A DNA stretch of 39,822 bases from Sedimentisphaerales bacterium (GCA_016933295.1 JAFGBG010000118.1:1-39822); one strand, 5' to 3'; counted from the first letter of the stretch, positions 3,080 to 34,484 are shown. The notes: generated by a model not told the origin, from the letters alone. Program-made: numbers and translations.

Positions 3080-3093
3080 GGAAGGATAAAAAT

Positions 3094-3297: not shown

Positions 3298-3318
3298 TAA
3301 ATTTTAAGGTATCTTATA

Positions 3319-4134: not shown

Positions 4135-4150
4135 ATTGAATTAGTAATGT

Positions 4151-5640: not shown

Positions 5641-5642
5641 TA

Positions 5643-5888: not shown

Positions 5889-5924
5889 GACACGTCCTGT
5901 GATTGTTGCAGTTAAGGTTGAAAT

Positions 5925-6647
5925 GTGAGACTTATTACAATTAATATTTTGTGTAGTGTATTGCTTTTATCATGTAATGCACCTGTTAAAAGCGTAAAAC
6001 ATATAGATGATAATAGTTCGAGCTGGTATTACCCGGATTGGGCGGCCAATGCTCCATATGCTCCTACTTTTGAAATGCTTGATACCGAAAGCAGCCTCGG
6101 ACCTTATGCAAAACAGACTAAAACAATTACGCTAAAAGATTTGGTAAAGATGCACGGCCACTTATGTGACGGTTTAGTTACTGCTTCCTGTGCTTTGGAG
6201 CTTGGTCTGGATCGCTTATACCCTGATGGTGTTATTGATAGAACGGATACCTGCTGCATAAGTAATAATTCTCCGTGTTTTGGTGATACGGCCGCTTATC
6301 TTACGGGCGGCAGAATAAGATTTGGCACACAAAAAATTGATCCTAACTTGAGTAACGAATTAATAATTTACCGCATGTCGACAAAACAAGCGGTTAAAAT
6401 ATCTCTTAAGGAAGGAGTATTTCCTCCCGAGCTTGCAGAGCTTGAAAAGAAGATAAAATCAGGCGATTTTACTATCGAACAAATGCGACTATGTCAGAAA
6501 CTTGGTTGGGATTTTGCGGAGAGCCTTATTAATAAGTCGCTCGGTGAATCGTTTGTTGTCGAAGATATAGATGATTTAGTTTGGAAATCTGATAACTATA
6601 TTTATCAGGGAAAGAGAAGCGACATAATAAATAAAAATATCAAATAA
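5925..6647 (+). CDS. FmdE-like domain lipoprotein
   Basis: GTG start; lipobox-like 'ILCSVLLLSC'; 'LKDLVKMHGHLCDGLVTASCALELGLDRL' as in FmdE-family proteins. Confidence 0.7.
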   Translation: MRLITINILCSVLLLSCNAPVKSVKHIDDNSSSWYYPDWAANAPYAPTFEMLDTESSLGPYAKQTKTITLKDLVKMHGHLCDGLVTASCALELGLDRLYPDGVIDRTDTCCISNNSPCFGDTAAYLTGGRIRFGTQKIDPNLSNELIIYRMSTKQAVKISLKEGVFPPELAELEKKIKSGDFTIEQMRLCQKLGWDFAESLINKSLGESFVVEDIDDLVWKSDNYIYQGKRSDIINKNIK

Positions 6648-6673
6648 GGATTATTAAAGAAAGGTAAAGCATA

Positions 6674-7042
6674 ATGAGTAACGAAAATATATGTTCGGGC
6701 GGACCAAAGCTGATTTTCGCATGTTCAGGTGCGGCCGACGTGGGGGAAATTTCCGACCGTGCGGCGAGAAAGTTAAGCAAAGACGGCGTTGGAGCGATGT
6801 TTTGTCTTGCCGGTATCGGCGGAGAAGTCGAGCCGATTCTGAAAAAAACTCACTCGGCCTCGAAAATTCTGGCGATTGACGGCTGTTCGCTGAATTGTGT
6901 GAAAAGTACTCTCGAACAGGCCGGATTTGAGGAATTCGAATATATTCGTGTCACCGACCTTGGATTGGAAAAGGGCAAAAGTCCGGCCAGTGAAGAAAAT
7001 ATCGCAAAAGTAACCGCCGCGGCGGCAGAGAAGCTTTCTTAG
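6674..7042 (+). CDS. Putative zinc-binding (DGC domain) protein
   Basis: 'LIFACSGAADVGEISDRAARKLSKDGVGAMFCLAGIGG...ILAIDGCSLNCVKSTLEQAG'. Confidence 0.85.
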   Translation: MSNENICSGGPKLIFACSGAADVGEISDRAARKLSKDGVGAMFCLAGIGGEVEPILKKTHSASKILAIDGCSLNCVKSTLEQAGFEEFEYIRVTDLGLEKGKSPASEENIAKVTAAAAEKLS

Positions 7043-7143
7043 AGTAGAAAGACTTGAAATTGTATCTTAAAATATGCCTGTGAACGTTTCCGAGTATCTT
7101 TGCAGGTCGAATATGAAATTATAGAAAGGCAGGTGGCTTGACT

Positions 7144-7680
7144 ATGAACCAAACGTTGAAAGTTGTCATTGTTGTCGTTCTTATTATTTCGATAATTGCG
7201 GTAATCAATATTAAGCGCAATAAATCTGAGCAGGGGGCCGGAGCGAATGCCGAGACAACGGCTGTCGTGAATGAACCGGCTCAGCCGGAGCCGTCTGTAA
7301 GTGAGGATGTGCCGCAGCCGATCGAACCTGATTCGCTGGCGAATTCGGAAATAACGGCAAGTGCCGAAGAACCTGTGCAGCCGGAGCAGCTTGTAACGAA
7401 GAAACTGCCGAAACTGCTCGATCTCGGTTCCGATCAGTGCATCCCGTGTAAATTGATGGCACCGATTCTCGAAGAGCTGAAGACCGAATATACCGGCAAA
7501 TTCAAAGTGGAATTTATGGACGTTCGGATAGATCCGATGCTGGCTAAGGTTTATAACATTAAGCTTATTCCAACTCAGATTTTCTTTGATGCTTCCGGCG
7601 AGGAGCTGTTCCGGCACGAAGGATTTTACTCCAAAGAAGATATACTTTCAAAGTGGAAAGATCTTGGTGTGGAATTCTGA
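7144..7680 (+). CDS. Membrane-anchored thioredoxin-fold protein
   Basis: N-terminal TM 'VVIVVVLIISIIAVI'; 'DQCIPCKLMAPILEELK' CxxC; cis-Pro 'KLIPTQIFFD'. Confidence 0.9.
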   Translation: MNQTLKVVIVVVLIISIIAVINIKRNKSEQGAGANAETTAVVNEPAQPEPSVSEDVPQPIEPDSLANSEITASAEEPVQPEQLVTKKLPKLLDLGSDQCIPCKLMAPILEELKTEYTGKFKVEFMDVRIDPMLAKVYNIKLIPTQIFFDASGEELFRHEGFYSKEDILSKWKDLGVEF

Positions 7681-7743
7681 GTGCCTGTAAAATCGGCGAA
7701 GGCGTACCCAAATAATATTATGAGTAGCTATAGGAGAATTAAG

Positions 7744-8700
7744 ATGAGACTTTCCGGTATTTTGTTAATTGTATGTTTCTTGACGCTGATATTAATAGTT
7801 CCTCTGCAGGGAGCCGGGCCGAATAGCACGTTAAAGCCGTCATCGACGCCGAAATCTGTGATAGTAAAGGACAAGTATCCAAACATAGAAATGGGATTTT
7901 TGAATGGCGCCGTTGTTTCTGATCAGCCGGAGGGTGTATTACTCAAAGCCGGCAGTCTGGTGGTTTATAACAAGGATCTGGACCGAACAATAGCCGAGGC
8001 CGATGAGAAAGTCAGGTCCGGGCTAAAAAAATATGCTTCATTGGTTTTGGAACAAATCTCCATTCCAAAATTGTTGGTTATAGAAATCAAACAAGAAGCG
8101 GCAAAAAACGGCCGGGAGATAACGGAAACGGACGACGATAAAATTATCCAGGATTACCTCCCTACATTGATCGAAAAAGTGAAAGTCAGCGATGCGGAAA
8201 TACTCGAATTCTATAATACAAATAAAGATTCGTTCGGCGATGCTACTCTGGCACAAATCAAACCTCAAATTCAACAATACCTTACCCAGCAGAACCTGCA
8301 GAAACTTATTAATGAAAGAATTCGTACCATTGGCGATAGAATGAAGATTGAAATTTCCGCTTCATGGCTAAAGGCCCAGGCGGCTTTGGAACGAGACAAT
8401 CCCGTTAATAAAGCGCGTGACAACGGAAAACCTACTATGGTTGATTTCGGATCCAAAGGTTGCGTGCCGTGTGACATGTTGGCTCCGATACTGGAGACGC
8501 TGCAGGAAAAATATAATGGCAAAGCCAATATCGTCGTCGTGTTGGTTGGTGAAGAGCCTGTACTTGCGTCACGTTACGGCGTGGAGGTGATTCCTCTCCA
8601 GATATTCTATGATAAAACCGGCAAAGAGGTATTCCGCCATGAAGGTTTTTACTCACAGAAAGAAATCGAGCAGAAGTTGTCGGAAGTTGGAGTCAATTAG
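7744..8700 (+). CDS. SurA_N/parvulin-chaperone-like plus thioredoxin fusion, exported
   Basis: Signal peptide 'MRLSGILLIVCFLTLILIVPLQGAG'; helical region similar to SurA N-domain; C-terminal 'KGCVPCDMLAPILETLQ...VIPLQIFYDKTGKEVFRHEGFYS'. Confidence 0.8.
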   Translation: MRLSGILLIVCFLTLILIVPLQGAGPNSTLKPSSTPKSVIVKDKYPNIEMGFLNGAVVSDQPEGVLLKAGSLVVYNKDLDRTIAEADEKVRSGLKKYASLVLEQISIPKLLVIEIKQEAAKNGREITETDDDKIIQDYLPTLIEKVKVSDAEILEFYNTNKDSFGDATLAQIKPQIQQYLTQQNLQKLINERIRTIGDRMKIEISASWLKAQAALERDNPVNKARDNGKPTMVDFGSKGCVPCDMLAPILETLQEKYNGKANIVVVLVGEEPVLASRYGVEVIPLQIFYDKTGKEVFRHEGFYSQKEIEQKLSEVGVN

Positions 8701-8703
8701 CAG

Positions 8704-9402
8704 GTGGAAAAGCTTTTCACAAGCCTAATTCACGCCGTTGAAGGTACACCCGCAATCGCCGTAGCGGCGGCTTTTGTCTGGGGGATTCTCAGCGTTTTGC
8801 TGAGTCCCTGCCACCTGGCGAGTATTCCTTTAATAGTCGGTTTTATCAACGGGCAGGGACAGATTACAACGCGGCGTGCTTTTTGTATATCCGGTCTGTT
8901 TTCCGTTGGTATCTTAATCACAATCGCCGGCATCGGAGCTATCACTGCGGCGGCGGGGCGAATGTTGGGTGATGTCGGGCCGTACGGCAATTATTTTGTA
9001 GCGGCGGTTTTTTTCGTGGTCGGTCTTATTCTTCTTGATGTAATACCTATGCCGTTCAGCGGCCCCGGTCAGGTCGGAATAAAACGCAGGGGTATGCTTG
9101 CCGCTTTTATTCTCGGATTGGTTTTTGGTGTAGCTATCGGCCCATGTACGTTTGCTTTTATGGCTCCCGTGCTGGGGATTACGTTCAAGGTAGCCTCATC
9201 GAATATCGCCTACGGCGTAGTTTTGCTGCTGGTATATGGTTTGGGCCATTGTTCGGTGATTGTTTTTGCGGGAACTTTCGCCGAATTGGTGCAGCGCTAT
9301 ATGAACTGGAACGAAAAATCCAAAGGGGCGGTTTTTCTTAAAAGAATCTGCGGAATTCTTGTTTTAATAGGCGGGCTATACCTGCTTTTTATCGCCGTTT
9401 AA
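8704..9402 (+). CDS. CcdA/DsbD-type cytochrome c biogenesis/thiol reductant transporter
   Basis: GTG start; 'GILSVLLSPCHLASIPLIVGFI' and 'FGVAIGPCTFAFMAPVLGI'. Confidence 0.9.
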   Translation: MEKLFTSLIHAVEGTPAIAVAAAFVWGILSVLLSPCHLASIPLIVGFINGQGQITTRRAFCISGLFSVGILITIAGIGAITAAAGRMLGDVGPYGNYFVAAVFFVVGLILLDVIPMPFSGPGQVGIKRRGMLAAFILGLVFGVAIGPCTFAFMAPVLGITFKVASSNIAYGVVLLLVYGLGHCSVIVFAGTFAELVQRYMNWNEKSKGAVFLKRICGILVLIGGLYLLFIAV

Positions 9403-9743
9403 CGAACATTCCTGTGCACACAGCTCATTATTGTTGACACATCCGGCTGAGGGCATAAAATAGCCGCAAATACCGAATGATAGATTCGAAATGCAATAGC
9501 TTTGAACTTTTGATGTATTGACCTATACTTTATTGTACTGGAGACCGGTAATAAATATTTGTGCGGTTTTATTAAAGTGCCCAACTTTGTCGTAGCTGTT
9601 TATTTAAGCATGAAGGATTTATATATTGCGGAGCATAAAATCTTTGAGTGCTACATAAGCTGCTGAATATAGAAGACTTTAGCTTTATATATATGGATTT
9701 GGTAGTTAATAGAGATTCTGGTTCAATTGTACATTTGATTGTT

Positions 9744-9773
9744 TTGGACAATTCTATATGTGAGTGATATAAT
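9744..9773 (+). promoter_or_regulatory. Putative promoter TTGGAC-N18-TATAAT
   Basis: Consensus-like -35/-10 pair ~52 bp upstream of the ATG at 9826. Confidence 0.5.
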
Positions 9774-9825
9774 GCCGGATTCAATGGAAAATTTATTATC
9801 ATCTAATGTGATAGGTAGCTTAAAG

Positions 9826-11247
9826 ATGAATCAGAATTTTAAAAATATGTTTCGTGAATATGATATCCGGGGACGTGTGAACGATGAAGAGCTTAACAAG
9901 AGCAGTGTCTCGTTGATCGTAAAGGCATTTGGAACATGGCTTCGAAAGCTTGATCAGACGAGCAATCTCGTTGTTATTGGCTACGACAATCGCTCTTATT
10001 CACCCCGATTTTCTGAAATTGCTAAAGAGGCAATGGTGCAATGTGGATTTCACGTGATTGACATCGGCCTGAGTTTGAGCCCTGTGGTTTATTTTGCTCA
10101 ATACTACTGTAAATCTCCCGCCGCAATTATGATTACTGCCAGTCATAATCCGGATGGTTGGTGCGGATTTAAACTCGCCAATGGCTACTCTAAAACCCTT
10201 GGCCCCCGGGAAATTAAAGAACTTTTTTCTGTTGTGGAAAGCGAAGAATTCGTTGAAAGGGGCGGTGGTAGTTGCGAACAAGTTGACGTTCGGGATGCCT
10301 ATATTGATAGTATAGTGAGCCGGATAAATATGAACGCAAACGGTGTTCCACGTGTTGTCATTGAAGCCGGAAACGGCGGAGCCGGGATTTTTGCCTGGGA
10401 AGTTTTTTACAGACTGGGATGCCCTACTTTCCAGCTATATTGTGATCCGGATATAAGTTATCCACATTATTTCCCTAATCCTTCGGATCTCAAAGCACGA
10501 ACCCGCTTGAGCGAGATGGTGACACATCAATATATCCATGCTGATGTAGGTATCGGCTTTGATGGAGATGGGGACCGTATCGGGATTATCGACGAGAATG
10601 GACAAAACCTTTGGAGTGACAGGCTCCTTATGATTCTGGCGAGGCAGTTGCTTGAGAAGAAGCCGGGGGGTAAAATAGTTTTCGACGTAAAATGCACACA
10701 GGCGCTTCCCGAAGTAATTACTGAATACGGTGGTGAACCAATCATGTGGAAAACCGGGCACTCTCTCGTCAAGGCCAAAATGCATGAAACCAAGGCCGAT
10801 TTAGCTGGAGAACGAAGTGGTCATATTTTTGTGGGCGGGGAAGATTATTATGGTTTCGACGACGCTATATTTGCGGCGGCCAAGTTGGTTGAGTATTTAT
10901 CCCACGTCAAAAAACCGATCACTGAAATCCTGAATTCCTTTCCTCAGTATATTACATCACCTGAAATCAAGGCCCATTGTCCTGACGAGACCAAGTATGA
11001 CGTGGTGGATCGGCTTGTGGCCGATTTTAAGAGGGAATACGGCTCGCGTGTGAACGACATTAACGGGGCCAGGGTGCTCTTTGATAATGGATGGGGCCTG
11101 GTTCGGGCTTCCTCGAACCTGCCGGAGTTGGTGCTTATCTTCGAAGGCAAAACAGAGCAGGACATGATGCACATACGCGACATATTCAAGACGAAACTGG
11201 ATAAATATAAGGACATCGACAGTCAATGGGAGAATGATGTACGCTGA
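9826..11247 (+). CDS. Phosphomannomutase/phosphoglucomutase (AlgC-like)
   Basis: 'FREYDIRG', 'MITASHNPDGWCGFKLA', 'GFDGDGDRIGI', 'GERSGHIF', 'VRASSNLPELVLIFEG'; start moved to 9826. Confidence 0.92.
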   Translation: MNQNFKNMFREYDIRGRVNDEELNKSSVSLIVKAFGTWLRKLDQTSNLVVIGYDNRSYSPRFSEIAKEAMVQCGFHVIDIGLSLSPVVYFAQYYCKSPAAIMITASHNPDGWCGFKLANGYSKTLGPREIKELFSVVESEEFVERGGGSCEQVDVRDAYIDSIVSRINMNANGVPRVVIEAGNGGAGIFAWEVFYRLGCPTFQLYCDPDISYPHYFPNPSDLKARTRLSEMVTHQYIHADVGIGFDGDGDRIGIIDENGQNLWSDRLLMILARQLLEKKPGGKIVFDVKCTQALPEVITEYGGEPIMWKTGHSLVKAKMHETKADLAGERSGHIFVGGEDYYGFDDAIFAAAKLVEYLSHVKKPITEILNSFPQYITSPEIKAHCPDETKYDVVDRLVADFKREYGSRVNDINGARVLFDNGWGLVRASSNLPELVLIFEGKTEQDMMHIRDIFKTKLDKYKDIDSQWENDVR

Positions 11248-11507
11248 TTACGTATAGTAAGTTGATGTCTTAATCCATCGCATTGGCGTTTATCCTCAAT
11301 GAGGACTTCTTTATCATTAGTAAGATTGGTGTTGCGAATAGTCTGTTTGAATGCGGAAAATAAGCACGATATGGCATAGGAACTTTGGTTTTGTGAATAA
11401 TCTATCTACAATGTTCATATATGTATTATGAATCAATTTTTGCCTAATTTTAAGCTTGACACCAGATTCAACATATCATAGTATATTTTAAGGTTGGTTT
11501 TTGACTA

Positions 11508-11541
11508 ATTTCATCTGAAATGAATGCAATTTTGCATTCAT
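11508..11541. promoter_or_regulatory. Overlapping tandem palindromes ATTTCA-TC-TGAAAT (11508-11521) and ATGAATGCAA-TT-TTGCATTCAT (11520-11541)
   Basis: Perfect inverted repeats upstream of the Gfo/Idh gene; candidate operator or RNA hairpin. Confidence 0.6.
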
Positions 11542-11589
11542 AATAAGAGTCGAGGTATTGAGCCAACTTTTTTGGTGAGCGGTATTCCC

Positions 11590-12570
11590 ATGAATCTGAG
11601 CGAGAAATTGGTTTTGGCTGTTATTGGTGGTGGCGAGGCGGCTGAAAAGGCGATACCTATAATCCGAAAAAATTCTTATTTTGACCTTCAAGCCGTACAA
11701 TGTAAATCCAAAGAATTAATCGGACTCATTCCACCGATATGCCGTAAAGAAAGGTTAGACGAGTTGTTTAATTTGCCAGCGATATCAGCGATATATATAG
11801 CAACTCCCCCAGATACACATATATCAATAGCGAGGCGTTTTCTGGAATACGGCAAACATGTACTAATTGAGAAGCCATTGGCTAATGAGTCATCACAAGT
11901 GAACGCTCTTATTGTGCCAACGGGGCTTACAATTGGAGTTGCACTCAAAAAACGCTTCGGTGATTGGATTCCTCACTTTAATTCTCTTTTTCATGATGAG
12001 CTCGGCGGACTGCATATAGAACTCACCTGGAAAATCAATAAACCATCGACACCTTGGCGCTTCCAGTTAGAAAAGGCAGGAGGAGGGGTATTGATGGATT
12101 TGGGGCCACATATCCTCGATTTAGCGGAATTTCTATGCGGAAGCATTCTAAAAATCAGCGGCAAAGCCGTATTTGGGGATAGTACGTGTTGTATAGATGA
12201 CAGCGTATGGCTTCATATGGTACACTATCATGGTACAGTCACCGACCTCAGTCTCAGTTGGAGAGGTAAAAAACGGGAATATTGCTTAAACGCAGTGAGA
12301 GGAACTAAGCATTTGTGCCATAAGCGTGAAGTTGGCCAGGAAGATACTCTTGAGCTTCAATATAATAATTGTTATCAGGTACGACTACTGAGTGATTCTC
12401 GTCATGAATACGAAGGGCTGTTCAACAACTTCGCAGGGGCTATTTATGGTCGTCGAAATGGGCTACCAACGCTTGCTGATGGTATCCGCAATCTACGTCT
12501 AATTAGTGCTGCTTACCAAGCCATTCATTCAGGAGGAACGGTGAATATAGCCGATTACTCGGAGAAGTGA
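11590..12570 (+). CDS. Gfo/Idh/MocA-family oxidoreductase
   Basis: 'IATPPDTHISIARRFLEYGKHVLIEKPLA' motif and 'GGGVLMDLGPHILDLAEFL'; the ORF-track start at 11524 lies inside a palindrome. Confidence 0.9.
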   Translation: MNLSEKLVLAVIGGGEAAEKAIPIIRKNSYFDLQAVQCKSKELIGLIPPICRKERLDELFNLPAISAIYIATPPDTHISIARRFLEYGKHVLIEKPLANESSQVNALIVPTGLTIGVALKKRFGDWIPHFNSLFHDELGGLHIELTWKINKPSTPWRFQLEKAGGGVLMDLGPHILDLAEFLCGSILKISGKAVFGDSTCCIDDSVWLHMVHYHGTVTDLSLSWRGKKREYCLNAVRGTKHLCHKREVGQEDTLELQYNNCYQVRLLSDSRHEYEGLFNNFAGAIYGRRNGLPTLADGIRNLRLISAAYQAIHSGGTVNIADYSEK

Positions 12571-12572
12571 GT

Positions 12573-13796
12573 ATGACAAAGCAAACCTTGGCGATAAAAG
12601 GTGGACAACCTATACGCTCTATACCGTGGTCGTCGAGAAATCGTTCTGACGAATCCACACGGTGCGCACTAATGGCAGCACTTGACGCTGTAAACTGGTC
12701 AAATGGTGATTTTGCGCGCCGGTTTGAACGTCGCTTGTCCGAATTCTTAGGATGTCGCTTTGCCTTACTGACAACTAATGCAACCACTGCTCTCAAATTA
12801 TACCTGCTGGCCAGGGATGTCGGGCCTGGTGATGAGGTAATTATTCCGGCACTCACTTTTCCATCAATCGCAATGGCAGTAATGGAATGTGGCGCTACTC
12901 CCATTATCTGTGATGTCGAAGCTAACACCGGGTGTATGAGTGCCAGAACTTTCGAAGCGGTGTTAAGCAAAAAAACGCGTGTTGTGATCCCCACACACCT
13001 CTATTGTACATTATGTGATATGCCTCCGATAGTTGATCTGGCTAAACGGAACAATATTGATGTTGTTGAGGATTGTGCCCATTCTCCGGGCGCTCGCAGA
13101 AATAATTATAGCGCTGGTACTTTTGGTAATGCTGGAATCTTTAGTTTCAACCAGAAAAAACCGCTTTCTTGTGGAGAAGGTGGATGCCTCGTCACCAACC
13201 AAACTGAGGTTTACGAAACAGCACGCTACCTGCGAGACTTCGATAGTCCTCCTACCAAATCGTCAGTACGAATTCAACGGATGGGTAAGATCTCCGAATT
13301 CCAGGCCGCAGTACTGATTGGCCAGCTCGATTCCTTACCAAAACATTTACGAGCGATAGAGGAACGGGCCGAGAATTTGCGAGAACACCTCAATTATATG
13401 ACCGATATTACATTGGTGCCACGTCTTCCAGGCACTGATCTGCAAACCTTCTATAATATTTGTTTTATGGTCAATGAAAACATCAATGTTGCTTTTTTTA
13501 GGAAAGCTCTGTCCGCCGAATTGGGAATTCCCGTATCAAGCAGCTACGTACCACTGAATCAGAACCAGTCACTAAACTGTACACGTGACCGACAATTCAT
13601 AAACTACGCGGTAGAATCAAAAGTTCCATGCTGTACTGCCGAACGGATTTATAGATACAGGGCTGTTCGGTTCCCCGGATACTATCTCAATATAGATCCA
13701 ACGGCAGTAGATGACATCGACAGCGCGATAACCAAGGTGTTACCGCATGCTAAGCAGACACAGATGTCTGAGGAGGATGCCCATGCCTATCGCTGA
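12573..13796 (+). CDS. DegT/DnrJ/EryC1/StrS-family PLP aminotransferase
   Basis: 'DEVIIPALTFPSIAMAVMECGATPIICDVEANTGCMS', 'IDVVEDCAHSPGA', 'GIFSFNQKKPLSCGEGGCLVT' with putative PLP lysine. Confidence 0.93.
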   Translation: MTKQTLAIKGGQPIRSIPWSSRNRSDESTRCALMAALDAVNWSNGDFARRFERRLSEFLGCRFALLTTNATTALKLYLLARDVGPGDEVIIPALTFPSIAMAVMECGATPIICDVEANTGCMSARTFEAVLSKKTRVVIPTHLYCTLCDMPPIVDLAKRNNIDVVEDCAHSPGARRNNYSAGTFGNAGIFSFNQKKPLSCGEGGCLVTNQTEVYETARYLRDFDSPPTKSSVRIQRMGKISEFQAAVLIGQLDSLPKHLRAIEERAENLREHLNYMTDITLVPRLPGTDLQTFYNICFMVNENINVAFFRKALSAELGIPVSSSYVPLNQNQSLNCTRDRQFINYAVESKVPCCTAERIYRYRAVRFPGYYLNIDPTAVDDIDSAITKVLPHAKQTQMSEEDAHAYR

Positions 13797-15429
13797 TATT
13801 GCCATCATTTGTGCACTTGATATTGAAGCCAAGGCCATGTTAGAGGCCATCGGCGATATGGATAGAAGCCACTTCAAGCTTGGACCGTTTGACTGTCATT
13901 ACGGCCATATCAAGCGCAACGGGGACGAATGTTACCCGATAGTGCGCGTGGTTGTTTTGCATCTTGGCCGTATGGGTAATCTGGCCTCGATGCAAGCTGC
14001 TACCCTACTTCTACGCGAGGTGCATCCAAGTCAAGTTTTCCTCGTCGGAATTTGTGGTGGATTTGCTGAAACACAGACTGATTATTGTCTTGGCGATATT
14101 GTAGTCAGTGACAAAGTATATTATTATGAGCCTCAAAAGTTATGGCCCGACAGAGTTGAACATAGAGGTGTAGAACTGTTTTGTCCTGTCGAAGGAGAGA
14201 CGAAATATACTCCATCAAAACTTTATTTACTCGCGGAAAAGAAAAAAAGTGAGAGCAATTTACCTTTTATTGAGCCTTTGTCATCGCTTATCAGTACACC
14301 TTACCCCCACGGTGACAGTCAACATTTTAAACCAACAGTACGAACAGGTACGGTTTGTTCGGGAGAGAAAGTAGTAGCTGATGAATCCTTTGTTAAAAGT
14401 CTTCTTATTGAAAAGACAAACGCAATATCAGTGGAAATGGAAGCGGCGGGTGTGGCTGCGGCTTGTCAGGATGCAAAGACTCCATTCTTAGTGGTTAAAG
14501 CAGTATCTGATTTCACCAATTTAACTCCTGACTGGCAGGCGACTCAACGTACTTTTGCAGCAGAGGCTGCAGCCGCCTATACTATAGCCTTAATTACCTA
14601 TCCGTATCATGTAGCGGGCGGAGTTGGTAAAACTAAAAATACTGAAGGACTCGTTTTGAGTAAGCGTTGCCCACCCAAATCTTTTCTGACGGATTTTTTT
14701 CGAACAACTATCGATCTCGGAGTGGATGTCGTAATGCCGTCATACAAGAATTACCGTCATTCTGACAGTGGATTCCGAAATTACCCATTTAATGAATATG
14801 AAACGGCTTTTGATGATGTTTATTGTTCATTTCGTATTCATCCAAGCCTCATACATCTCATCGATAGTGGTATAGTCAAGTTCAAATTTGATCAACAGCT
14901 CCAAAATGGATTATTGAAAAATAAGAATATTATTCTTATTGGATCATCGGTGGCAAATGATTTTACCCAGGACATTCTCATAGATTTTAATGCTTTTTAT
15001 CATTTTGGCGATAATGAATCTAATGACCATGATATCGTGGATCGGAATGGAAAAACTTGTTTTGCTGCAAAAGTCAGTAGAAGAGTAGTGGGAGGTGAGG
15101 TACAAAAAAAATACATCAAAGATTATGGTCTCATAAGTGTATTCCACGATGGTTCCCGAAGTATCTGCATCTTGGCAGGCTGTCGTGCATTCTCACAAAT
15201 GTTATTGGGTGATTGGCTTGTTGAGGGCAATACTATAGAGGGTATATATCGGCACATTTATGGTTGTGACTTTCAACTTATTATTAAGGTAAAAGTGGCT
15301 GGACGCTCTTATAACTTTGAAGAGATTGCTATGCTTAAAAAACGTGAAGAAAATAGTTCGGAATGGAGGACTGTTAATTTACCAACCAGCCTAATTGCTA
15401 AAGGAGAATCTGTTCAATGTCTTTTATGA
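13783..15429 (+). CDS. Nucleoside phosphorylase/nucleosidase-like domain fused to an uncharacterised C-terminal domain
   Basis: RBS-like aggagg upstream of ATG 13783; N-terminal 'ADIAIICALDIEAKAMLEAI', 'VFLVGICGGF', 'AISVEMEAAGVAAACQDAKTPFLVVKAVSDF'; C-terminal ~270 aa unassigned. Confidence 0.85.
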   Translation: MPIADIAIICALDIEAKAMLEAIGDMDRSHFKLGPFDCHYGHIKRNGDECYPIVRVVVLHLGRMGNLASMQAATLLLREVHPSQVFLVGICGGFAETQTDYCLGDIVVSDKVYYYEPQKLWPDRVEHRGVELFCPVEGETKYTPSKLYLLAEKKKSESNLPFIEPLSSLISTPYPHGDSQHFKPTVRTGTVCSGEKVVADESFVKSLLIEKTNAISVEMEAAGVAAACQDAKTPFLVVKAVSDFTNLTPDWQATQRTFAAEAAAAYTIALITYPYHVAGGVGKTKNTEGLVLSKRCPPKSFLTDFFRTTIDLGVDVVMPSYKNYRHSDSGFRNYPFNEYETAFDDVYCSFRIHPSLIHLIDSGIVKFKFDQQLQNGLLKNKNIILIGSSVANDFTQDILIDFNAFYHFGDNESNDHDIVDRNGKTCFAAKVSRRVVGGEVQKKYIKDYGLISVFHDGSRSICILAGCRAFSQMLLGDWLVEGNTIEGIYRHIYGCDFQLIIKVKVAGRSYNFEEIAMLKKREENSSEWRTVNLPTSLIAKGESVQCLL

Positions 15430-16250
15430 AAAAATCAATAGATACAACAGCGTGGACGGAAATTTTGAAAGACATCATTCGTAGATGTATAAAAGAGGTT
15501 AAGCCCCTTTTTACGATACCTGAGGGTATGTGTGTCATTTCCATTAAACCGGATTATGATCCTACTATCGCGGCAGAGATTAAAGCGGAGGGTATCGCAG
15601 CCGGCATAATTCGGAAAGTCGGTTCTTCTATTGCATTGTTTAGTGAGGAACAAGAGTATTTACTCAATCCTCTAAATCCTACTCATCTGGTACTTTTTGA
15701 TCCTGTTGACTGCACCTACTTGGCGATAAGAGAGCTGCCCGGAGCCAGCGCCGGAATCTGTGTAATAGATTTGTCACAAAGGAAAATCATTTCGGCTGCT
15801 ATTGGGGATTATTACAATGGTGATCTCTACTGGGCTGATGAAGAAGGGGCTTTTTATAACGGGCAGCAACGGCATCCTACCAATGTTACTGAATTGAAGG
15901 ATGCTTTTGTCTCAACTTGTTACGGCAAGGCCAGTCGTGTGAATAAAATGCTTGCCGGAGAAGGAATGACTCGGGACGCTTTCTGGATTGACACAACATC
16001 TGGTATTCTTGCTATGGCCCAGGTAGGTATCGGCCGAATGGATGCTTATTTTGACCTGATGCTTGGCTTTAAACCATTTGACTTTGCACCTGGAGCTTAT
16101 TTTGCTGCTAAGGCTGGAGCTTGTGTAACTGACGAGTATGGCAATCCCTTAGAATGGCCTCATGATCAACACCAAAGATGTAAGTTTGTTATCGCCGCAA
16201 CATGCGAGTTGAACAAAGAAATCAGACAATCTGCCGGACGAATAACATGA
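15417..16250 (+). CDS. Inositol monophosphatase/FBPase-superfamily protein (divergent)
   Basis: 'LFSEEQEYL', 'LVLFDPVDCTYLA' (DPxDGT variant), 'FKPFDFAPGAYFAAKAGACVTDEYGNPL'. Confidence 0.8.
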   Translation: MSFMKKSIDTTAWTEILKDIIRRCIKEVKPLFTIPEGMCVISIKPDYDPTIAAEIKAEGIAAGIIRKVGSSIALFSEEQEYLLNPLNPTHLVLFDPVDCTYLAIRELPGASAGICVIDLSQRKIISAAIGDYYNGDLYWADEEGAFYNGQQRHPTNVTELKDAFVSTCYGKASRVNKMLAGEGMTRDAFWIDTTSGILAMAQVGIGRMDAYFDLMLGFKPFDFAPGAYFAAKAGACVTDEYGNPLEWPHDQHQRCKFVIAATCELNKEIRQSAGRIT

Positions 16251-16448
16251 TTTATCGAATGCACATTCCGTTTTTTATGCCTTTGAAAACAAAATGCGAT
16301 CATAGGAAGGTATAATCGTATTCTTGAAATAAAGGAAAATTGCTTTAATATTTCCGCCGGCTCACGTGAGTTATGAGCATTAGGAATGGTGATTTCTGAA
16401 AGGAAAGCCGGGCTTTACAGTCACAACTCTCTATAGAGCCGGTATCTT

Positions 16449-17024
16449 TTGAAGCTAATCATGCAGCCCAAAATAATAATTTCAAAAGACGGATTAATAA
16501 AATGCATCTTTCGGATGATAGAACAAAAAGACGGATTAGCACTTGGATATTTTTTTGGTTTACTCTCTGATGAAACTAAATCTCGATTTGCTCCACATCC
16601 CCTCACGCCGGAATATGCAAAAAGGCTCTGCATAAACGAATCAGGTGATACCGCAGAAAGATTCGTTCTTGAATGTGACAGAAAAATTATTGGATACTTT
16701 ATTCTGGAATATGTAATGTCAGTTCATGAAGCTAATAGATACAGGCAATTCGGAGTGAACTTGAAGTCGAATCAAGATATTCTTTTTGCACCATGCATTT
16801 TGGACGAATATCAGAATAAAGGACTTGCAAGTCAGGTTATGATGATTTTGATTCAACATGCGAAAGAGAAACGCATGAGAAGCATTGTACTTATGGGGGG
16901 AACTCAGGAAACTAACATCATCGCTAAAAAACTTTATGAAAAATACGGTTTTAAGAAATATGGAGGGTATCAAACAGATATTTACAACATAGATATGCGA
17001 TTGGAGTTACATCAGTCACAATAG
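16449..17024 (+). CDS. GNAT-family N-acetyltransferase
   Basis: 'FAPCILDEYQNKGLASQVMMILIQHAKEKRMRSIVLMGGTQETNIIAKKLYEKYGFKKYG'. Confidence 0.85.
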   Translation: MKLIMQPKIIISKDGLIKCIFRMIEQKDGLALGYFFGLLSDETKSRFAPHPLTPEYAKRLCINESGDTAERFVLECDRKIIGYFILEYVMSVHEANRYRQFGVNLKSNQDILFAPCILDEYQNKGLASQVMMILIQHAKEKRMRSIVLMGGTQETNIIAKKLYEKYGFKKYGGYQTDIYNIDMRLELHQSQ

Positions 17025-17258
17025 CAAAGATAACAGCTTAGGGTACTTTGAGGTTGTGTTCCATTCTTTTCGTAATCAATGTGGGTTGACGAGCAGCGAT
17101 ATCGATGTCACTGAATATTATAGAAATCGTAGAAATTTTTCAACATTACCTCACTAAGGAAAAATGTGCGTCTTTTCTTTAATATCAGGGATATCTTCTA
17201 ATATCAATCAAAAAACACGACGAAGAAGTGGAAAATCATTGAGTCTTAGGACAAAGCT

Positions 17259-17879
17259 ATGCCTGGATATTCGTTCGTGTCGGAAGAGCATGGTCAAATC
17301 ATACGGAATGATGAGCTTACCTGGGTAATTGATCCACTTGATGGTTCCAGTTACTATGTTCGGGGATTGCAATCTTTCAGAATATCGGTCGCTTTGCTGC
17401 ATCAATGGCAGCCTGTTCTTGGTATTGTTTCCTGCCCATTAAATGCAGAATTTTTCACTGCTCTTCATGCAGGTGGATCGTATCTTAATGGCAAGCCAAT
17501 TACGGTATCTTCCCATAGAAAACTTCAAGATTGCATTTTTAGCTTCAGTCATCGTTTTCTAATGGATACGGAATACAGAAGACCACGTGATGAACTGGTA
17601 GCTTCGTGTCGATCAATCAGAGGAGGAGGATCCTGTGCACAGGAATTGTGTTACATCGCGTGTGGAAGGATAGATAGTTTAATTGCACCTGCACAGAAAA
17701 TCTGGGATTTTGCCGCAGGGATTCTCATTGTTGAAGAAGCAGGGGGGCAATTAACGAATTTTGCAGGTGAATCACCTGATTATTTTGCTATATCACAAAA
17801 AGATTTCTCTCTTGTTGCCTCTAATGGACATATACACAGACAAATTTTGGAATCACTGCTTTCCTACACAGAGGGCTAA
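17259..17879 (+). CDS. Inositol monophosphatase family protein, apparently N-terminally truncated
   Basis: 'PGYSFVSEEHG', 'WVIDPLDGSSYYVRGLQSFRISVALL', 'WDFAAGILIVEEAGGQLTNF'; lacks the usual ~60 N-terminal residues. Confidence 0.75.
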   Translation: MPGYSFVSEEHGQIIRNDELTWVIDPLDGSSYYVRGLQSFRISVALLHQWQPVLGIVSCPLNAEFFTALHAGGSYLNGKPITVSSHRKLQDCIFSFSHRFLMDTEYRRPRDELVASCRSIRGGGSCAQELCYIACGRIDSLIAPAQKIWDFAAGILIVEEAGGQLTNFAGESPDYFAISQKDFSLVASNGHIHRQILESLLSYTEG

Positions 17880-17903
17880 GGTAGGCCTAAGAATGAACTC
17901 TGT

Positions 17904-18062
17904 ATGTTTAAAAAAATAGCAACTTTTGTTTCCTGGATAATCTCATTAATTTTTCTGACCTTTCCGTTCAAGCATTCTACCATAGGCGTGAACACATTTC
18001 TGGTACTGAACATCTTTTATATTTTTCTCTATTCAAGACATAACTATTGGTTTGTTTGTTGA
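17904..18062 (+). CDS. Possible 52-aa small membrane protein
   Basis: Short ORF MFKKIATFVSWIISLIFLTFPFKHSTIGVNTFLVLNIFYIFLYSRHNYWFVC, two hydrophobic stretches; below the ORF-track length cut-off; no strong RBS. Confidence 0.35.
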   Translation: MFKKIATFVSWIISLIFLTFPFKHSTIGVNTFLVLNIFYIFLYSRHNYWFVC

Positions 18063-18158
18063 CATTCTCATTACTATCGGTTAATAATACCCGAAACATT
18101 TAGATTATTGTATGAAGTGATGAAATCAACGTTCGGATCTGGTAAGGAAGTTAATGTA

Positions 18159-19529
18159 ATGGATCCTGCGATTTTCAGAATAGATGATGTATTAGGTATA
18201 TATCCGGACCAGCTCAGCGAGGAGGATGCGTGGAAAATCGGTTCCGCCACGGCACAGTTTTTACGGTCGCTTCTTCGAGGATATGAACGAGGCCAGGCGA
18301 ACGCCCAGTCGCTGTGCGTCGGTCGTGATATGCGAACACACAGCGAATCTTTGGTCAAGGCTCTTATCGAGGGCATGAATTCGACGGGAGCGAATGTTAT
18401 CGATATCGGCATGATTGATACGCCGCAGATGTATTTCGCCATCAATCATATAGGCACATGCGGCGGAGTCCAGGTGACCGCTTCGCATAATCCGGCAAAA
18501 TATAACGGTTTTAAAATCTCCGGACTGGAGGCCAAGCCGGTCGGCGCCGATACAGGCCTGAAAGATATAGAGCATATCGCGTTGGCGCTGCTTCATACAA
18601 AAGGGACCGCTTACGGCTCGGTCAGGGAGATGGATTTAACCGCCGAATATAAAAATCATGTCCTGAAATTTCTCAAACCGAACACCAAAAAGCTGAAGAT
18701 TGCCATTGATGCTTCCAACGGGATGGCCGGCAAAATAGTACCGGCGATTTTCGGTGATTTGCCGATTGAGATAGTCAGTCGGAATTTCCAGCATACCGGC
18801 AAGTTTAAGCACGAGCCTAATCCGCTGGTCGAGGCGAATCTGACTCAGGTCAAATCAGCGGTCAAAAGGAGCAAGTGCGATTTCGGCGTATGTTTCGACG
18901 GCGATGCGGACCGGCTGATTATGGTCGATGAAAAAGGCAATACCATCGGATGCGATTTATTGACGGCGTTAATGGTGCCGTATTTTCTGGAAAAGCAGCC
19001 GAAATCCGCCATAGTTTACGATTTGCGCAGCAGCAGGGTCGTTATGGAAGAGATTATCAAGCACGGCGGCACGCCGCGAAGAGAGAGAGTCGGCCATGCG
19101 TTTATGAAAAAGGCCCTGCGCGATTCGCACGCCGTATTCGGTGGCGAGCTGTCGGGGCATTTTTATTATCGCGATAATTTTTATGCCGATTCGGGGATGA
19201 TTACGTTGGTGCATGTGATTAATATCATCAGTGAAGCGGAAGTGCCGATAAGTGAGCTGATAAAACCTCTGCGAAGGTATTCGACCAGCGGCGAATTGAA
19301 CTTCGAGGTCGAAAACAAACAAGACAAAATGGAGGAGCTTGCAAAACGTTACAGCGACGGCCAGGTGGATTGGTTTGATGGTGTTACGGTCGGATATAAG
19401 GATTGGTGGTTTAACTGCCGGCCTAGTAATACAGAGCCGCTGTTGAGATTGAATTTAGAAGCCAAAAATAAAGAAATGCTCGAAGAGAAGCTCTCTGAAA
19501 TCACCGGACTATTGGGCGAGCCGGTTTGA
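18159..19529 (+). CDS. Phosphomannomutase/phosphoglucomutase (ManB-like)
   Basis: 'VQVTASHNPAKYNGFKI', 'CFDGDADRLIMVDEKG', 'GELSGHFYYRDNFYADSGM', 'CRPSNTEPLLRLNLEA'. Confidence 0.92.
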   Translation: MDPAIFRIDDVLGIYPDQLSEEDAWKIGSATAQFLRSLLRGYERGQANAQSLCVGRDMRTHSESLVKALIEGMNSTGANVIDIGMIDTPQMYFAINHIGTCGGVQVTASHNPAKYNGFKISGLEAKPVGADTGLKDIEHIALALLHTKGTAYGSVREMDLTAEYKNHVLKFLKPNTKKLKIAIDASNGMAGKIVPAIFGDLPIEIVSRNFQHTGKFKHEPNPLVEANLTQVKSAVKRSKCDFGVCFDGDADRLIMVDEKGNTIGCDLLTALMVPYFLEKQPKSAIVYDLRSSRVVMEEIIKHGGTPRRERVGHAFMKKALRDSHAVFGGELSGHFYYRDNFYADSGMITLVHVINIISEAEVPISELIKPLRRYSTSGELNFEVENKQDKMEELAKRYSDGQVDWFDGVTVGYKDWWFNCRPSNTEPLLRLNLEAKNKEMLEEKLSEITGLLGEPV

Positions 19530-19909: not shown

Positions 19910-20007
19910 ATCTGGCTAAATCCGTAATAAAATCCACCGGAGGGAATTAGGATTATAAGGGATTGAGATATTGCATAAACTAAAAGAGCGGCATGGGAGA
20001 GATACAA

Positions 20008-20772
20008 ATGAAACTCAAATCGAATATTTTATTTTTTATCGCTGGAGCATTTTGCTTTTTATCTTTGAGCAGTGGTAGTGTTCAGGCTGCGTTGGCTTTT
20101 CAAACCGAGCCGCAATATGAGAATATCGATGTTATTTCTTTAACTATAAAATATCCGTCGGAAGTTTCCGTACTCAAAGAGTCTTACTGGGAAGACCTTA
20201 AGACACTGCAAGAGCAAAAACTTAAAGAAGCTGATTTGAATGTCTCATCAGATAAAAATATTACTCATTCAAAGACAGGTGTAGAGATTGTAGTTGACGT
20301 CGAGCTGTTAAAAGTGCCGGATGCGAATCTGTTTGCCGTTCGTATCGAGACAGTCATGGCCCGGCAGATGCTGTTGGCAACCGGAAGCGATCAAATTTTG
20401 ATTATGTCGATTCCTTTGGTCACTCAGGGTATAAAATTCGTTTCTGAGCATGAATTATCTGATTCTATCGAAAACTCTGTTTCCGGGCACATCGATCAAT
20501 TTCTTAGGAATTATCAGGCGACTAAGTCTTTAAGGGAAAAGAAAGATGCTCAGACAGGGCATGCCGCTGCCGAGGTTAATCAACCGGCTCAAGCGGTTCA
20601 GCAGACCCAGGTGACAAGGGATGTATATGTAGCATCGAAGAACAGCGAGGTTTTTCATAAACCCGGCTGTCGCTGGGCGCAAAATATCTCGGGGGAAAAT
20701 CGTCTCACTTACAACAGCCGCGATGAAGCGATCAACGCCGGCAAAAGACCGTGCAAATCGTGTAATCCGTGA
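20008..20772 (+). CDS. Exported protein with Ada-like zinc-binding C-terminus
   Basis: Signal peptide; 'VYVASKNSEVFHKPGCRWAQNISGENRLTYNSRDEAINAGKRPCKSCNP'. Confidence 0.75.
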   Translation: MKLKSNILFFIAGAFCFLSLSSGSVQAALAFQTEPQYENIDVISLTIKYPSEVSVLKESYWEDLKTLQEQKLKEADLNVSSDKNITHSKTGVEIVVDVELLKVPDANLFAVRIETVMARQMLLATGSDQILIMSIPLVTQGIKFVSEHELSDSIENSVSGHIDQFLRNYQATKSLREKKDAQTGHAAAEVNQPAQAVQQTQVTRDVYVASKNSEVFHKPGCRWAQNISGENRLTYNSRDEAINAGKRPCKSCNP

Positions 20773-20798
20773 TATTCGAGACAAAGAGAATTTGAATA

Positions 20799-21515
20799 AT
20801 GAGACTTCAGTTTATAGCATGTAAGGTAATGCAGAGAGAGGCGTATTTTTGTGCCGCCCGGTCCAGAAATATTGTCGATGTCGTTCTGATGGAGCAGGGT
20901 CTGCATAACGAGCCGGATAAGCTCAGGACGCAAGTGCAGAAGGCTCTTGAAAAATGCACCGACATACAGGGCAGGCCTTACGATGCCTCGCTGCTGGGTT
21001 ACGGACTTTGCAGCAACGGGATTGTCGGTCTTACGGCGAAGATTCCCATTGTAGTTCCCCGCGGGCACGACTGCGTGACATTATTGCTGGGCTCGAAGGA
21101 AAAATATCGGGAGTATTTCGATTCTCATCCCGGTATTTACTGGTACAGCCCCGGTTGGATAGAGACCGGCGTGCAGCCGGGCAAGGAACGCGCCGAAAAT
21201 ATGCTCGAGCAGTACAGGCAGAAATACGGCCGGGACAACGCGAAGTATCTTATGGAACTTGAGCAGGAATGGATAAAAAAATACCGCCGGGCCGTCTATA
21301 TCGACTGGGGACTCGGCGATAGCGAATATTATAAACAATACACGAAAAAGTGCGCCGACTTTCTCGGCTGGGACTATGAAGAGCTTCGGGGCAGTGACGA
21401 TTTATGCCGGAGACTTGTTGACGGGCCCTGGGACCAACAAGATTTTCTTGTTGTTGAGCCGGGGCGGAAAATCAGCGAAAACCTGACTAATGAAGGCATC
21501 ATAAAGGCCGAATAA
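20799..21515 (+). CDS. DUF1638-domain protein
   Basis: 'YDASLLGYGLCSNGIVGLTAKIPIVVPRGHDCVTLLLGSKEKYREYFDSHPGIYWYSPGWIE'. Confidence 0.85.
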   Translation: MRLQFIACKVMQREAYFCAARSRNIVDVVLMEQGLHNEPDKLRTQVQKALEKCTDIQGRPYDASLLGYGLCSNGIVGLTAKIPIVVPRGHDCVTLLLGSKEKYREYFDSHPGIYWYSPGWIETGVQPGKERAENMLEQYRQKYGRDNAKYLMELEQEWIKKYRRAVYIDWGLGDSEYYKQYTKKCADFLGWDYEELRGSDDLCRRLVDGPWDQQDFLVVEPGRKISENLTNEGIIKAE

Positions 21516-23154: not shown

Positions 23155-26100
23155 TTATATATTGCTATCGACTTTTTCGTAAATTTCTATCTCGACAATG
23201 CTGAGGTTGCTTCTGTTGCCTCTTCGGGCCCGGTTGCCCCTGTCGTTGTCTGCCTGGTCTCTTTGACCGTTAAGCTCCACGATATTAAAGGCATCTTTAT
23301 CTTGACCGGCACCCTGTAGTGCTACAGTAAGACTCGTACCGGAGGTCGCATCGAACGAGATGGTGACATATCCGAGATTGCGACCGGTGTTGCCCTGATA
23401 AACTTCTTTGTCGTCCACCGAAATCCGTATGGGATAGCTGGTGGTACGCCACCTGGACAGTTTCATAACCACCTCGCTCACGGTAGCCGGCCGGGCGAAG
23501 TTGTATTTAATCCATCCTGAAGTGAGATTTCCGTCGTTTGACCAGCTGGTCAGTTCGTTATCATCATAACTTTTGTCGGCTTCGTCCGAATTGGCGCCGG
23601 CGGTTGTGCCGCTTATACGCACCGGCACACGGGAAACTGTATAAGAAGGCCCTTTCGGTGTCGGCCCTCGACCGAGATAAGAAGGCATTGTAGCGCTAGG
23701 AATTTCCCGTGACAGTCCATCGACAACCTTCACCGGTTCGGAAACAATCTCGACGACGGTCGGTTTGAGCCCTTCTGAATCCGCTGTAAGGATGATTTTG
23801 CCCGCCTCGGTTTTCGAGCGGATAAGTACCCGATTCAAACCGCATTCCACCGGCAGTTTTTTTGAAAGAATGTAATTATCCGGTCCCTGTGCAATTCCGC
23901 CTCTCCATTCGGCGGGTCCTTTCAGCTCGAAGTTAATCATATTCAATGCGGTAGGGCAGCGTTGCCCGTTCGCATCGACGACCTCAACCTGGAAAATCGC
24001 CATATCCGCTCCGTCGGCACGCAGCGTTTGTGGCCCCAGCTTCGACAGTTTCACGGCTACCGGTCCTCCTGCAGTGGTATGTTGGGCTTCGCAGGTTTTG
24101 TTGCCGGAGCTATCATAGCCGATGGCTTTTATCGTGCCCGGTTGCCATTCGATATTCTCGAATGTGAACAGGAATCTATAATCCTGCTTACCGAAGCCTT
24201 TGGATCGGCCGTTGACACACAACTCAACCTTCTCGGCAGTGGATACTACGTATATGTTTTTCGTAACGCCTGGGGCGTAATTCCAGTGACCCAGTATATG
24301 TGCGGCAGGTTTTTCAATATCGACCCAGCAGTCCCACATGACCTTGTGTGCCCAAAAGCCGTCTTTCGGAATACGAAGCGGATCGACTTCACCGCTGCGC
24401 CGGTAATTCTCTGCGCCGCGATAGTGTGTGTTGGTATCGGAGAAAATAATATTCGCTCCGCCGCTGCTTACGCGTTCTCCCGTGCCCGGACGCTCGCGCC
24501 AGTAGTCATACCAGCGAATGATATCCTCGATAGCATGTGAATCCTGATTGCGATTATACTCCCTGGCCGGTGCGTTACGATAAAGCGGCCCGTCTCCATC
24601 CTTGTGATAAGGCGGAGAGAAATTGTCCCAGTATTTGCGCAATCCCTCGTCGCGCGAGTACTCGGTCGCCCACATGGGCTGGTCGGCGCTTTTATTGATA
24701 TATAACATTTCGCCGCCGTACTCGGCAACCTCGCTGTCGAGCATTTCACGGGCACCGACATAGCGGCCGCCGTGCGGGTCATACTTGTCTCGCAGGTCTT
24801 TCAGCTCCTGCATGTGGGCTTCGCTGATGGCCTCGTTGCCGCCTTCGTAGAATACTATGCTCGGATTGTTGCGGTTGTAAATAATCGCATCCCGCATCAG
24901 TTCGACGCGTTGTTCCCACTGCCGACCTCTTGCGTCACTTTCGGCGTCACCGGCCGGCATCATCTGGATCAGTCCCACGCGGTCGCAGGACTCGACATCC
25001 TGTTTCCACGGTGTGATGTGCATCCAGCGTATGATATTGCCGTTGCCTTCAACAATCATACGGTTACTGAAATCACTCAGCCACGGCGGGACGGACATAC
25101 CGACCGCGGGCCATTCGTTGGATGTTCTTTGCCCATAACCCTTGAATTGAATTACACGGTCGTTTAATTTTACCATGCCTTTTCCCAACTCGACCTTGCG
25201 AAAACCGGTGCGTGTTTTGACTACATCTACAGGCTCACCGTCCGCTTTCAGAATAGTATAGACGTTATAGAGATAACCGTATCCCCAGCTCCAGAAATTC
25301 AATCCCTCAACTTGTGACGACGCCTTGACGGTTACTGTCCGGCCCGGTGCTGCTTCCGTCGGCCCGCCGGAAAACGTCTTGATAACTTTGCCGTCCATAT
25401 CTTCTATAATGACCTCATAATCGAAAGTTTTGGTGTCTGCATGTTTATTTTTTACCTGAGATTCTGCCGTAATTGTTGCTGTTCTGTCAGGGATATTGAT
25501 ATTCTGTGCGTAGATATACACCCCGGTCGTGCCCAGATTGGAGTACAGCGGCAGTGTCTGATACAGCTTGTCGGTCGTATGCAGATAAACGTTCTTGGGA
25601 ATACCGCCGTAGTTGGCATTGAAATTTCTGTCGGCCCACTGATATCGCTGGCCCGTCGCTATCTCTCGGTAGTCCCATGAACTATCGGTTCTGACAGCCA
25701 GCACGTTTTCTTCGGTCCCGAACTTGACCAACTCGGTAATATCGAAGCCGCACGCCATGGCTCCGTTCTCGTGCCTGCCGATATGCTGGCCGTTAACGTA
25801 AAATTCGCCGCCCTGACGTATTCCCTCGAATTCCAGGAAAACTTTTCGGTCTGCATATTTGGAAGGAATCTTAAAGTGTTTGCGATACCAGGCAATTCCG
25901 GTTGTCAGGTTGTGGATATCTTTTCTGAAGGCCTCATCTTCGTTCCATGCGTATGGAAGAGTGACTGGTTTCCATGCCGAGTCGTCAAAATCGGCCGCTT
26001 GTGCGCAGTTCGGGTCACCGACAAGCACTTTCCACCGGGAATTGAAATTAAATTTGACTCGCATACTGTCCGGCGAATTATCGGCGAAGGTGATATTGGA

Positions 26101-34457: not shown

Positions 34458-34484
34458 AACTTAAGAAGTTACAAGGAATGAAAA

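What the first reader, a model, noticed from the sequence alone, without database searches (positions are those of the whole stretch)
9826..19529. Candidate undescribed amino-sugar/aminocyclitol pathway island
Seen: AlgC-like hexose-P mutase, Gfo/Idh dehydrogenase, DegT aminotransferase, nucleoside-phosphorylase fusion, IMPase-like phosphatase, GNAT, second IMPase and a second (ManB-like) mutase, all on one strand. The four central genes overlap end to start. There is no nucleotidyltransferase, glycosyltransferase or sugar-lipid transferase. Established: oxidation by Gfo/Idh, transamination by DegT and dephosphorylation is the logic of NtdC/NtdA/NtdB kanosamine synthesis and of StrI/StsC plus IMPase in aminocyclitols. 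Inference: the island makes a free, perhaps N-acetylated, amino sugar or inosamine, or modifies a nucleotide-derived sugar released by the phosphorylase domain.
Basis: partly seen in the sequence, partly recalled or inferred. Interest (0 to 1): 0.85.

Follow-up and report, generated by a model that had tools for sequence, protein, structure and literature searches.

The report
Acquired aminonucleoside-like island with nucleosidase fusion
An uncultured planctomycete has picked up a foreign block of genes laid out like the small pathway that makes amino-nucleoside antibiotics in other bacteria, but with the usual middle gene swapped for a fusion whose first half resembles bacterial antiviral enzymes that destroy ATP, so it may make a modified nucleoside or sugar not yet described.

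Summary
The genes are real. Four of them (Gfo/Idh, DegT, PNP fusion, IMPase; 11524-16250) overlap end to start. Three corrections: the second mutase (18108-19529) is a conserved core gene of the family, not island; the second IMPase lacks its first ~52 residues and looks like a remnant; the "phosphorylase" keeps hydrolase-type acidic residues and fits a nucleosidase better. Two same-genus genomes share both flanks and carry a CorA gene where this genome has ~8.7 kb (synteny stops at 9388, resumes at 18143). GC3 of the quartet is low, so this is an acquired block.

Best reading: the gene order Gfo-DegT-X-IMPase is that of adgB-E / pur10-pur4-pur7-pur3, which makes 3'-amino-3'-deoxynucleosides from NTPs. 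Here X is not the Nudix hydrolase but a nucleosidase domain grouping with immune ATP nucleosidases (Cap17, PNP-SAVED, PNP-EAD7), fused to a ~270-residue orphan domain. Product: an aminonucleoside, or the aminopentose freed from it (inferred). Kanosamine-like, aminocyclitol and NDP-sugar readings are less supported but not excluded. No second copy of the quartet turned up in the genomes sampled, and no Pur/Adg sequence was available for a direct homology test. Confidence about 0.4.

The parts
9389..18142 (.). acquired block (insertion or replacement) between ccdA/ArsG-like (8704-9402) and core mutase (18159-19529)
   Evidence: blastn synteny with two same-genus genomes stops at 9388 and resumes at 18143; they carry a CorA gene there; GC3 0.31-0.47 against about 0.50-0.60 for most flanking genes
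9826..11247 (+). mut1: alpha-D-phosphohexomutase, PgmG/AlgC-like, with intact YDIRG, TASHNP and GERSGH motifs; 277 bp upstream of the quartet
   Evidence: PGM_PMM I-IV; PgmG model 380 bits, below its 600 cut-off; absent from both same-genus genomes at E<=1e-60; best plasmid hits 37-40% to proteobacterial enzymes
11524..12570 (+). Gfo/Idh/MocA-type NAD(P)-dependent dehydrogenase; EKP and DLGPH (192) catalytic motifs kept
   Evidence: PF01408, PF22725; PDB matches to Gfo/Idh enzymes; no ortholog in 148 other relatives
12567..13796 (+). DegT/DnrJ/EryC1/StrS PLP aminotransferase; K198 and ED169 motifs kept
   Evidence: PF01041 229 bits; best PDB matches perosamine synthetase 158 bits and 2-deoxy-scyllo-inosose aminotransferase 157 bits; best relatives 35-39% identical
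13747..15429 (+). fusion: nucleosidase domain (residues 18-283) of the immune Cap17/PNP-SAVED/PNP-EAD7 side plus orphan C-terminal domain (about residues 290-560)
   Evidence: PF01048 71.5 bits; PADLOC PN-superfamily effector 92.8 bits; tree split 100/99 from the relatives' secreted nucleosidases; acidic residues E29, E230/E232, D255; C-terminus without convincing family match
15417..16250 (+). divergent inositol-monophosphatase-type phosphatase with metal-binding motifs SEEQ, DPVDCT and PFDFAPG (220)
   Evidence: PF00459 52.7 bits; alignments to solved IMPases; no ortholog in 325 other Planctomycetota genomes
16449..17024 (+). GNAT acetyltransferase, about 200 bp downstream of the quartet
   Evidence: PF00583 41 bits; weak PDB match
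17259..17879 (+). 5'-truncated second IMPase, probable remnant
   Evidence: profile positions 62-266 only, upstream frame holds stop codons
18159..19529 (+). core phosphomannomutase/phosphoglucomutase (mut2), not part of the acquired block; its invariant AYDIRG reads IDDVLG here
   Evidence: 63-80% identity in 37 of 40 other genomes searched; conserved synteny; motif comparison

Best explanation
The quartet is a horizontally acquired operon that works like the puromycin/ADG aminonucleoside module. The Gfo/Idh enzyme oxidises a ribose hydroxyl of a purine nucleotide to a ketone, the DegT enzyme converts the ketone to an amine, and the IMPase removes the last phosphate. In the third position the Nudix pyrophosphohydrolase of adgD/pur7 is replaced by a fusion of a purine nucleosidase domain and an unknown C-terminal domain. 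The nucleosidase either removes toxic aminonucleoside triphosphates (a protective part, as Pur7 is counted among the resistance-mediating enzymes) or cuts off the base so that a free aminopentose results. Shown: gene content, order, overlaps, catalytic residues, acquired status, immune-type placement of the nucleosidase domain. Inferred: the nucleotide substrate, the reaction order and the product.
For: Same family types in the same order as adgB-E, given as homologs of pur10, pur4, pur7 and pur3 and shown to make 3'-amino-3'-deoxyguanosine when expressed in E. coli (PMC9239236); [quoted passage not shown] That Pur10, Pur4 and Pur3 are of the Gfo/Idh, DegT and IMPase types is from general knowledge. 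The third gene encodes a nucleotide-type enzyme: its domain groups with Cap17-like ATP nucleosidases ((d)ATP degradation listed in PMC10952713). Catalytic motifs are kept in all four. Low-GC block with a clean sister-genome gap, as the ADG operon is also low in GC. A GNAT lies next door; the puromycin system too has an N-acetyltransferase (Pac).
Against: No Pur10, Pur4 or Pur3 sequence could be obtained, so homology beyond superfamily level is untested. DegT scores equally with perosamine synthetase and inosose aminotransferase. No Nudix gene and no transporter in the block. The Gfo/DegT/IMPase combination is generic and fits other amino-sugar pathways. No second example of the quartet was found, so no conserved co-occurrence supports a joint function.
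Confidence: 0.4

Rival explanations
1. Free amino-sugar operon of kanosamine logic: the Gfo/Idh oxidises a hexose phosphate, the DegT aminates it, the IMPase removes the phosphate; mut1 adjusts the hexose phosphate pool and the GNAT acetylates the product. The nucleosidase fusion is regulatory or accessory.
For: Gfo + DegT + phosphatase is the Ntd logic; a hexose mutase and a GNAT lie in the same acquired block; no transferases.
Against: NtdA is a weak match (90 bits against 157); no HAD phosphatase; does not explain a purine nucleosidase translationally coupled inside the operon; mut1 and GNAT are not coupled to the quartet.
Confidence: 0.25
2. Defence-like operon: Gfo, DegT and IMPase make or erase a modified nucleotide or sugar that the orphan C-terminal domain senses, switching the ATP-nucleosidase domain on, much as SAVED does in CBASS.
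For: The nucleosidase domain groups with Cap17, PNP-SAVED and PNP-EAD7 effectors, which pair the same domain with another domain; the layout nucleosidase domain then C-terminal domain resembles PNP-SAVED (560 and 538 aa); acquired low-GC block.
Against: The C-terminal domain is not SAVED (hhalign probability 0.1%), EAD or Cap17-N; no cyclase or other known partner; no other defence gene seen in the contig; long branches in the tree.
Confidence: 0.15
3. Ordinary NDP-sugar (surface polysaccharide) amino-sugar genes, displaced from their transferases.
For: DegT scores as high against GDP-perosamine synthetase as against anything; Gfo-DegT pairs of this kind are common, e.g. the Rhizobium plasmid cluster L188.
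Against: No nucleotidyltransferase, acyl- or glycosyltransferase in the block other than the GNAT, and the flanks are core genes in conserved synteny; an IMPase and a nucleosidase are not parts of such pathways.
Confidence: 0.12
4. Aminocyclitol (inosamine) pathway: an inosose is aminated and dephosphorylated.
For: 2-deoxy-scyllo-inosose aminotransferase is among the best solved matches of DegT (157 bits); the Gfo matches inositol 2-dehydrogenase models weakly (56 bits, cut-off 355); IMPase.
Against: No cyclase or inositol-phosphate synthase in the block; does not account for the nucleosidase.
Confidence: 0.08

Closest known systems
ADG operon adgA-E of Photorhabdus luminescens (PMC9239236)
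   Same: order dehydrogenase (pur10), aminotransferase (pur4), third gene, monophosphatase (pur3); compact low-GC block outside actinomycetes
   Different: third gene is a Pur7 homolog (Nudix in Pur7), here a nucleosidase fusion; no MFS transporter here; sequence homology not testable here
puromycin, A201A and cystocin nucleoside modules (pur, ata, cst; PMC11641026)
   Same: pur10/pur4/pur3 functions expected; GNAT nearby (Pac in pur)
   Different: no Nudix, methyltransferase or aminoacyl-nucleoside synthetase
Cap17 / PNP effectors of CBASS, Detocs and others (PMC10952713)
   Same: nucleosidase domain of the same group; fusion to a second domain
   Different: C-terminal domain unrelated to SAVED, EAD7 or Cap17_N; sits in a metabolic operon, not beside a cyclase
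NtdABC kanosamine synthesis
   Same: Gfo/Idh + DegT + phosphatase
   Different: phosphatase is IMPase, not HAD; DegT not NtdA-like

Membership tests
Pur/Adg aminonucleoside module | dehydrogenase, aminotransferase and monophosphatase of the Gfo, DegT and IMPase types in one operon in that order | tested here: met
   overlaps; the family types of the Pur proteins are from general knowledge
Pur/Adg aminonucleoside module | Nudix NTP pyrophosphohydrolase (Pur7/AdgD) | tested here: not met
   no Nudix match in any protein of the block; a nucleosidase fusion takes the position
Pur/Adg aminonucleoside module | sequence orthology with Pur10, Pur4 and Pur3 | not testable with these tools
   no pur, ata or adg sequence in the held collections that could be reached
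NtdABC kanosamine pathway | NtdA-type DegT | tested here: not met
   NtdA 90 bits against 157-158 for others
NtdABC kanosamine pathway | HAD phosphatase NtdB | tested here: not met
   only IMPase-type phosphatases in the block
aminocyclitol pathway | cyclase (2-DOI synthase or inositol-phosphate synthase) | tested here: not met
   none among the proteins of the window that were scanned; elsewhere in the genome not searched
aminocyclitol pathway | inosose-type DegT | tested here: inconclusive
   ties with perosamine synthetase
NDP-sugar pathway | nucleotidyltransferase or glycosyltransferase partners | tested here: not met
   none in the contig among proteins scanned; flanks are core synteny
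Cap17-type immune ATP nucleosidase | nucleosidase domain of the immune group | tested here: met
   split 100/99 with four defence-associated effectors, long branches noted; PADLOC PN-superfamily E 4e-27
Cap17-type immune ATP nucleosidase | known sensor domain (Cap17_N, SAVED, EAD) or cyclase partner | tested here: not met
Cap17-type immune ATP nucleosidase | ATP nucleosidase activity | not testable with these tools
   needs an assay

The most novel reading that the evidence does not exclude
A nucleotide-modifying defence or antibiotic operon in which an aminonucleoside module is wired to an immune-type ATP nucleosidase through a new sensor domain: the module makes an aminated nucleotide that either poisons polymerases or is the ligand that switches the nucleosidase on.
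Probability: 0.12. Interest if true: 0.85.

Novelty: new variant of a known kind. Interest (0 to 1): 0.5.

Why it matters
If the aminonucleoside reading holds, this would be such a module in the Planctomycetota, far from the actinomycetes and Photorhabdus where it is known, with a nucleosidase of immune type in place of the Nudix step. That would tie nucleoside-antibiotic chemistry to anti-phage nucleotide depletion and point to an undescribed aminopentose or aminonucleoside. It is testable with four genes in E. coli and LC-MS, as was done for ADG.

Tried and rejected
Searches for the full-length fusion: 148 other relatives, plasmids, phages, viral contigs, genome contigs: only the nucleosidase half or nothing. 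C-terminal half: 392 other Planctomycetota, six genomes of other groups, 378 Actinomycetota, plasmids (one chance-level hit): nothing. One search used peptide patterns, one of which (PWPxWPVW) the window DegT lacks, so it was biased against close relatives; of its 80 loci none has the nucleosidase or the IMPase, though many have a distant Gfo/Idh next door. Actinomycetota DegT neighbourhoods gave no pur-like cluster. Plasmid DegT hits (L186-L191) were other pathways or not pur-like. AlphaFold without relatives failed for the fusion (pLDDT 31) and its C-terminus, so no fold search was run. The search for related loci stopped answering. The SAVED idea for the C-terminus was tested and rejected. 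mut2 and IMPase 2 were considered as pathway members and dropped.

Full report
WHAT IS THERE. The window is contig C185 (39,822 bases) of a 4.24 Mb metagenome-assembled genome. Contigs of its family carry labels of Phycisphaerae/Sedimentisphaerales, Planctomycetota (the contig of G088 is DCUI01000199.1 and that of G055 is JAFGPJ010000087.1, by matching contig lengths). The four central ORFs overlap by 4, 14 and 13 bp, counting the third gene from its likely start at 13783, behind AGGAGG.

WHAT BELONGS TOGETHER. Two genomes of the same genus (G001, G002) keep the order ccdA/ArsG-like, a CorA-type gene, mut2, a 102-aa protein, metallophosphoesterase, manganese efflux, DUF362, S24 regulator. Nucleotide similarity with the window stops at 9388 and resumes at 18143, so the window holds about 8.7 kb where the sisters hold a CorA gene. 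No CorA remnant is left in the window. GC3 of Gfo, DegT, fusion, IMPase, GNAT and IMPase 2 is 0.31-0.43 (mut1 0.47), while most flanking genes lie at 0.50-0.60; a few flanking genes are also low (fmdE 0.32, the 102-aa gene 0.39). The block is acquired. mut2 is not part of it: it is present at 63-80% identity in 37 of 40 other genomes. IMPase 2 lacks the first quarter of the family profile, and its upstream frame is interrupted. mut1 is absent from both sister genomes.

THE ENZYMES. Gfo/Idh keeps EKP and DLGPH. DegT keeps the aldimine lysine K198 and ED169; its best solved relatives are perosamine synthetase (158 bits) and 2-deoxy-scyllo-inosose aminotransferase, with NtdA far lower (90 bits), so solved structures do not decide its substrate. 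IMPase 1 keeps the metal-binding motifs. The fusion's N-terminal half matches PNP_UDP_1 and, with a better score, the PADLOC immune 'PN-superfamily' effector model (92.8 bits; the MTA/SAH nucleosidase model gives 84.6). It keeps acidic residues where MTA/SAH nucleosidases have theirs (E29 in ALDIEA, E230/E232 in VEMEA, D255 in VSD; the roles of these residues are from general knowledge), which favours hydrolysis over phosphorolysis. In a tree it falls with PNP-SAVED, PNP-EAD7 and Cap17 proteins, split 100/99 from the secreted nucleosidases of its own family; the branches are long, so the exact neighbour is open. It shares the SGEK, SDF...W and AAAAxT motifs with the immune group. Two of these immune relatives lie next to a CBASS cyclase on plasmids. 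The C-terminal ~270 residues match nothing convincing in Pfam, PHROGs, PADLOC or the genomes searched, and are not SAVED.

HOW IT MOST LIKELY WORKS. The ADG operon of Photorhabdus is pur10-pur4-pur7-pur3 in that order and converts GTP to 3'-amino-3'-deoxyguanosine on expression in E. coli (PMC9239236). [quoted passage not shown] The quartet has the same enzyme types in the same order, with the third position taken by a nucleotide-directed fusion. I therefore propose oxidation and amination of a purine nucleotide ribose, with the nucleosidase either protecting against the toxic triphosphate or releasing an aminopentose, and final dephosphorylation by the IMPase. The substrate and the product are inferences; no Pur/Adg sequence was available for the direct test.

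RIVALS. Kanosamine-type synthesis is the main rival and cannot be excluded. Aminocyclitol and NDP-sugar readings lack their other defining genes. A defence reading is suggested by the nucleosidase domain and by its layout, which is that of PNP-SAVED, but it lacks any known partner.

CONSERVATION. No second quartet was found: 148 other relatives with the fusion, DegT and Gfo, 392 Planctomycetota with the C-terminal domain (18), 325 with IMPase 1 (114), about 400 Actinomycetota with the C-terminal domain or DegT, plasmids and phages. One search was biased, and the contig collections became unreachable later. So the quartet is a singleton in the data seen, which limits every claim about a joint function.

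VERDICT. A real, acquired, tightly coupled cassette of an unusual composition. I rate it a new variant of a known kind (the aminonucleoside module), confidence 0.4, interest 0.5.

Noticed in passing
window 18159-18200: The core mutase mut2 has lost the AYDIRG motif seen in all eight relatives whose motif was read (here IDDVLG), beside a block that brings a second, intact phosphohexomutase (mut1). A replaced function is possible.
   Followed up: partly
window 1751-9402: Arsenic-type gene cluster: ArsP permease, methyltransferase, SBF/Acr3-like transporter, FmdE, DGC, thioredoxins, ArsG-like CcdA.
   Followed up: no
window 19993-21512 and 23155-26175: An Ada-type metal-binding-domain protein with DUF1638, and a GH2 glycosidase, sit where the same-genus genomes G001 and G002 have no such genes, so more small insertions surround the block.
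   Followed up: no
L066 4949-6211: Same-genus genome G002 carries a PNP-EAD7 effector-type protein in a different setting.
   Followed up: partly
window 30042-37550: FGGY kinase, PHP, ADH-like and L-rhamnose isomerase genes on one strand: probable rhamnose catabolism.
   Followed up: no
L257 1734-5518: Calothrix plasmid with two PNP-family genes back to back, one a close relative of the Nostoc PNP-SAVED protein.
   Followed up: no
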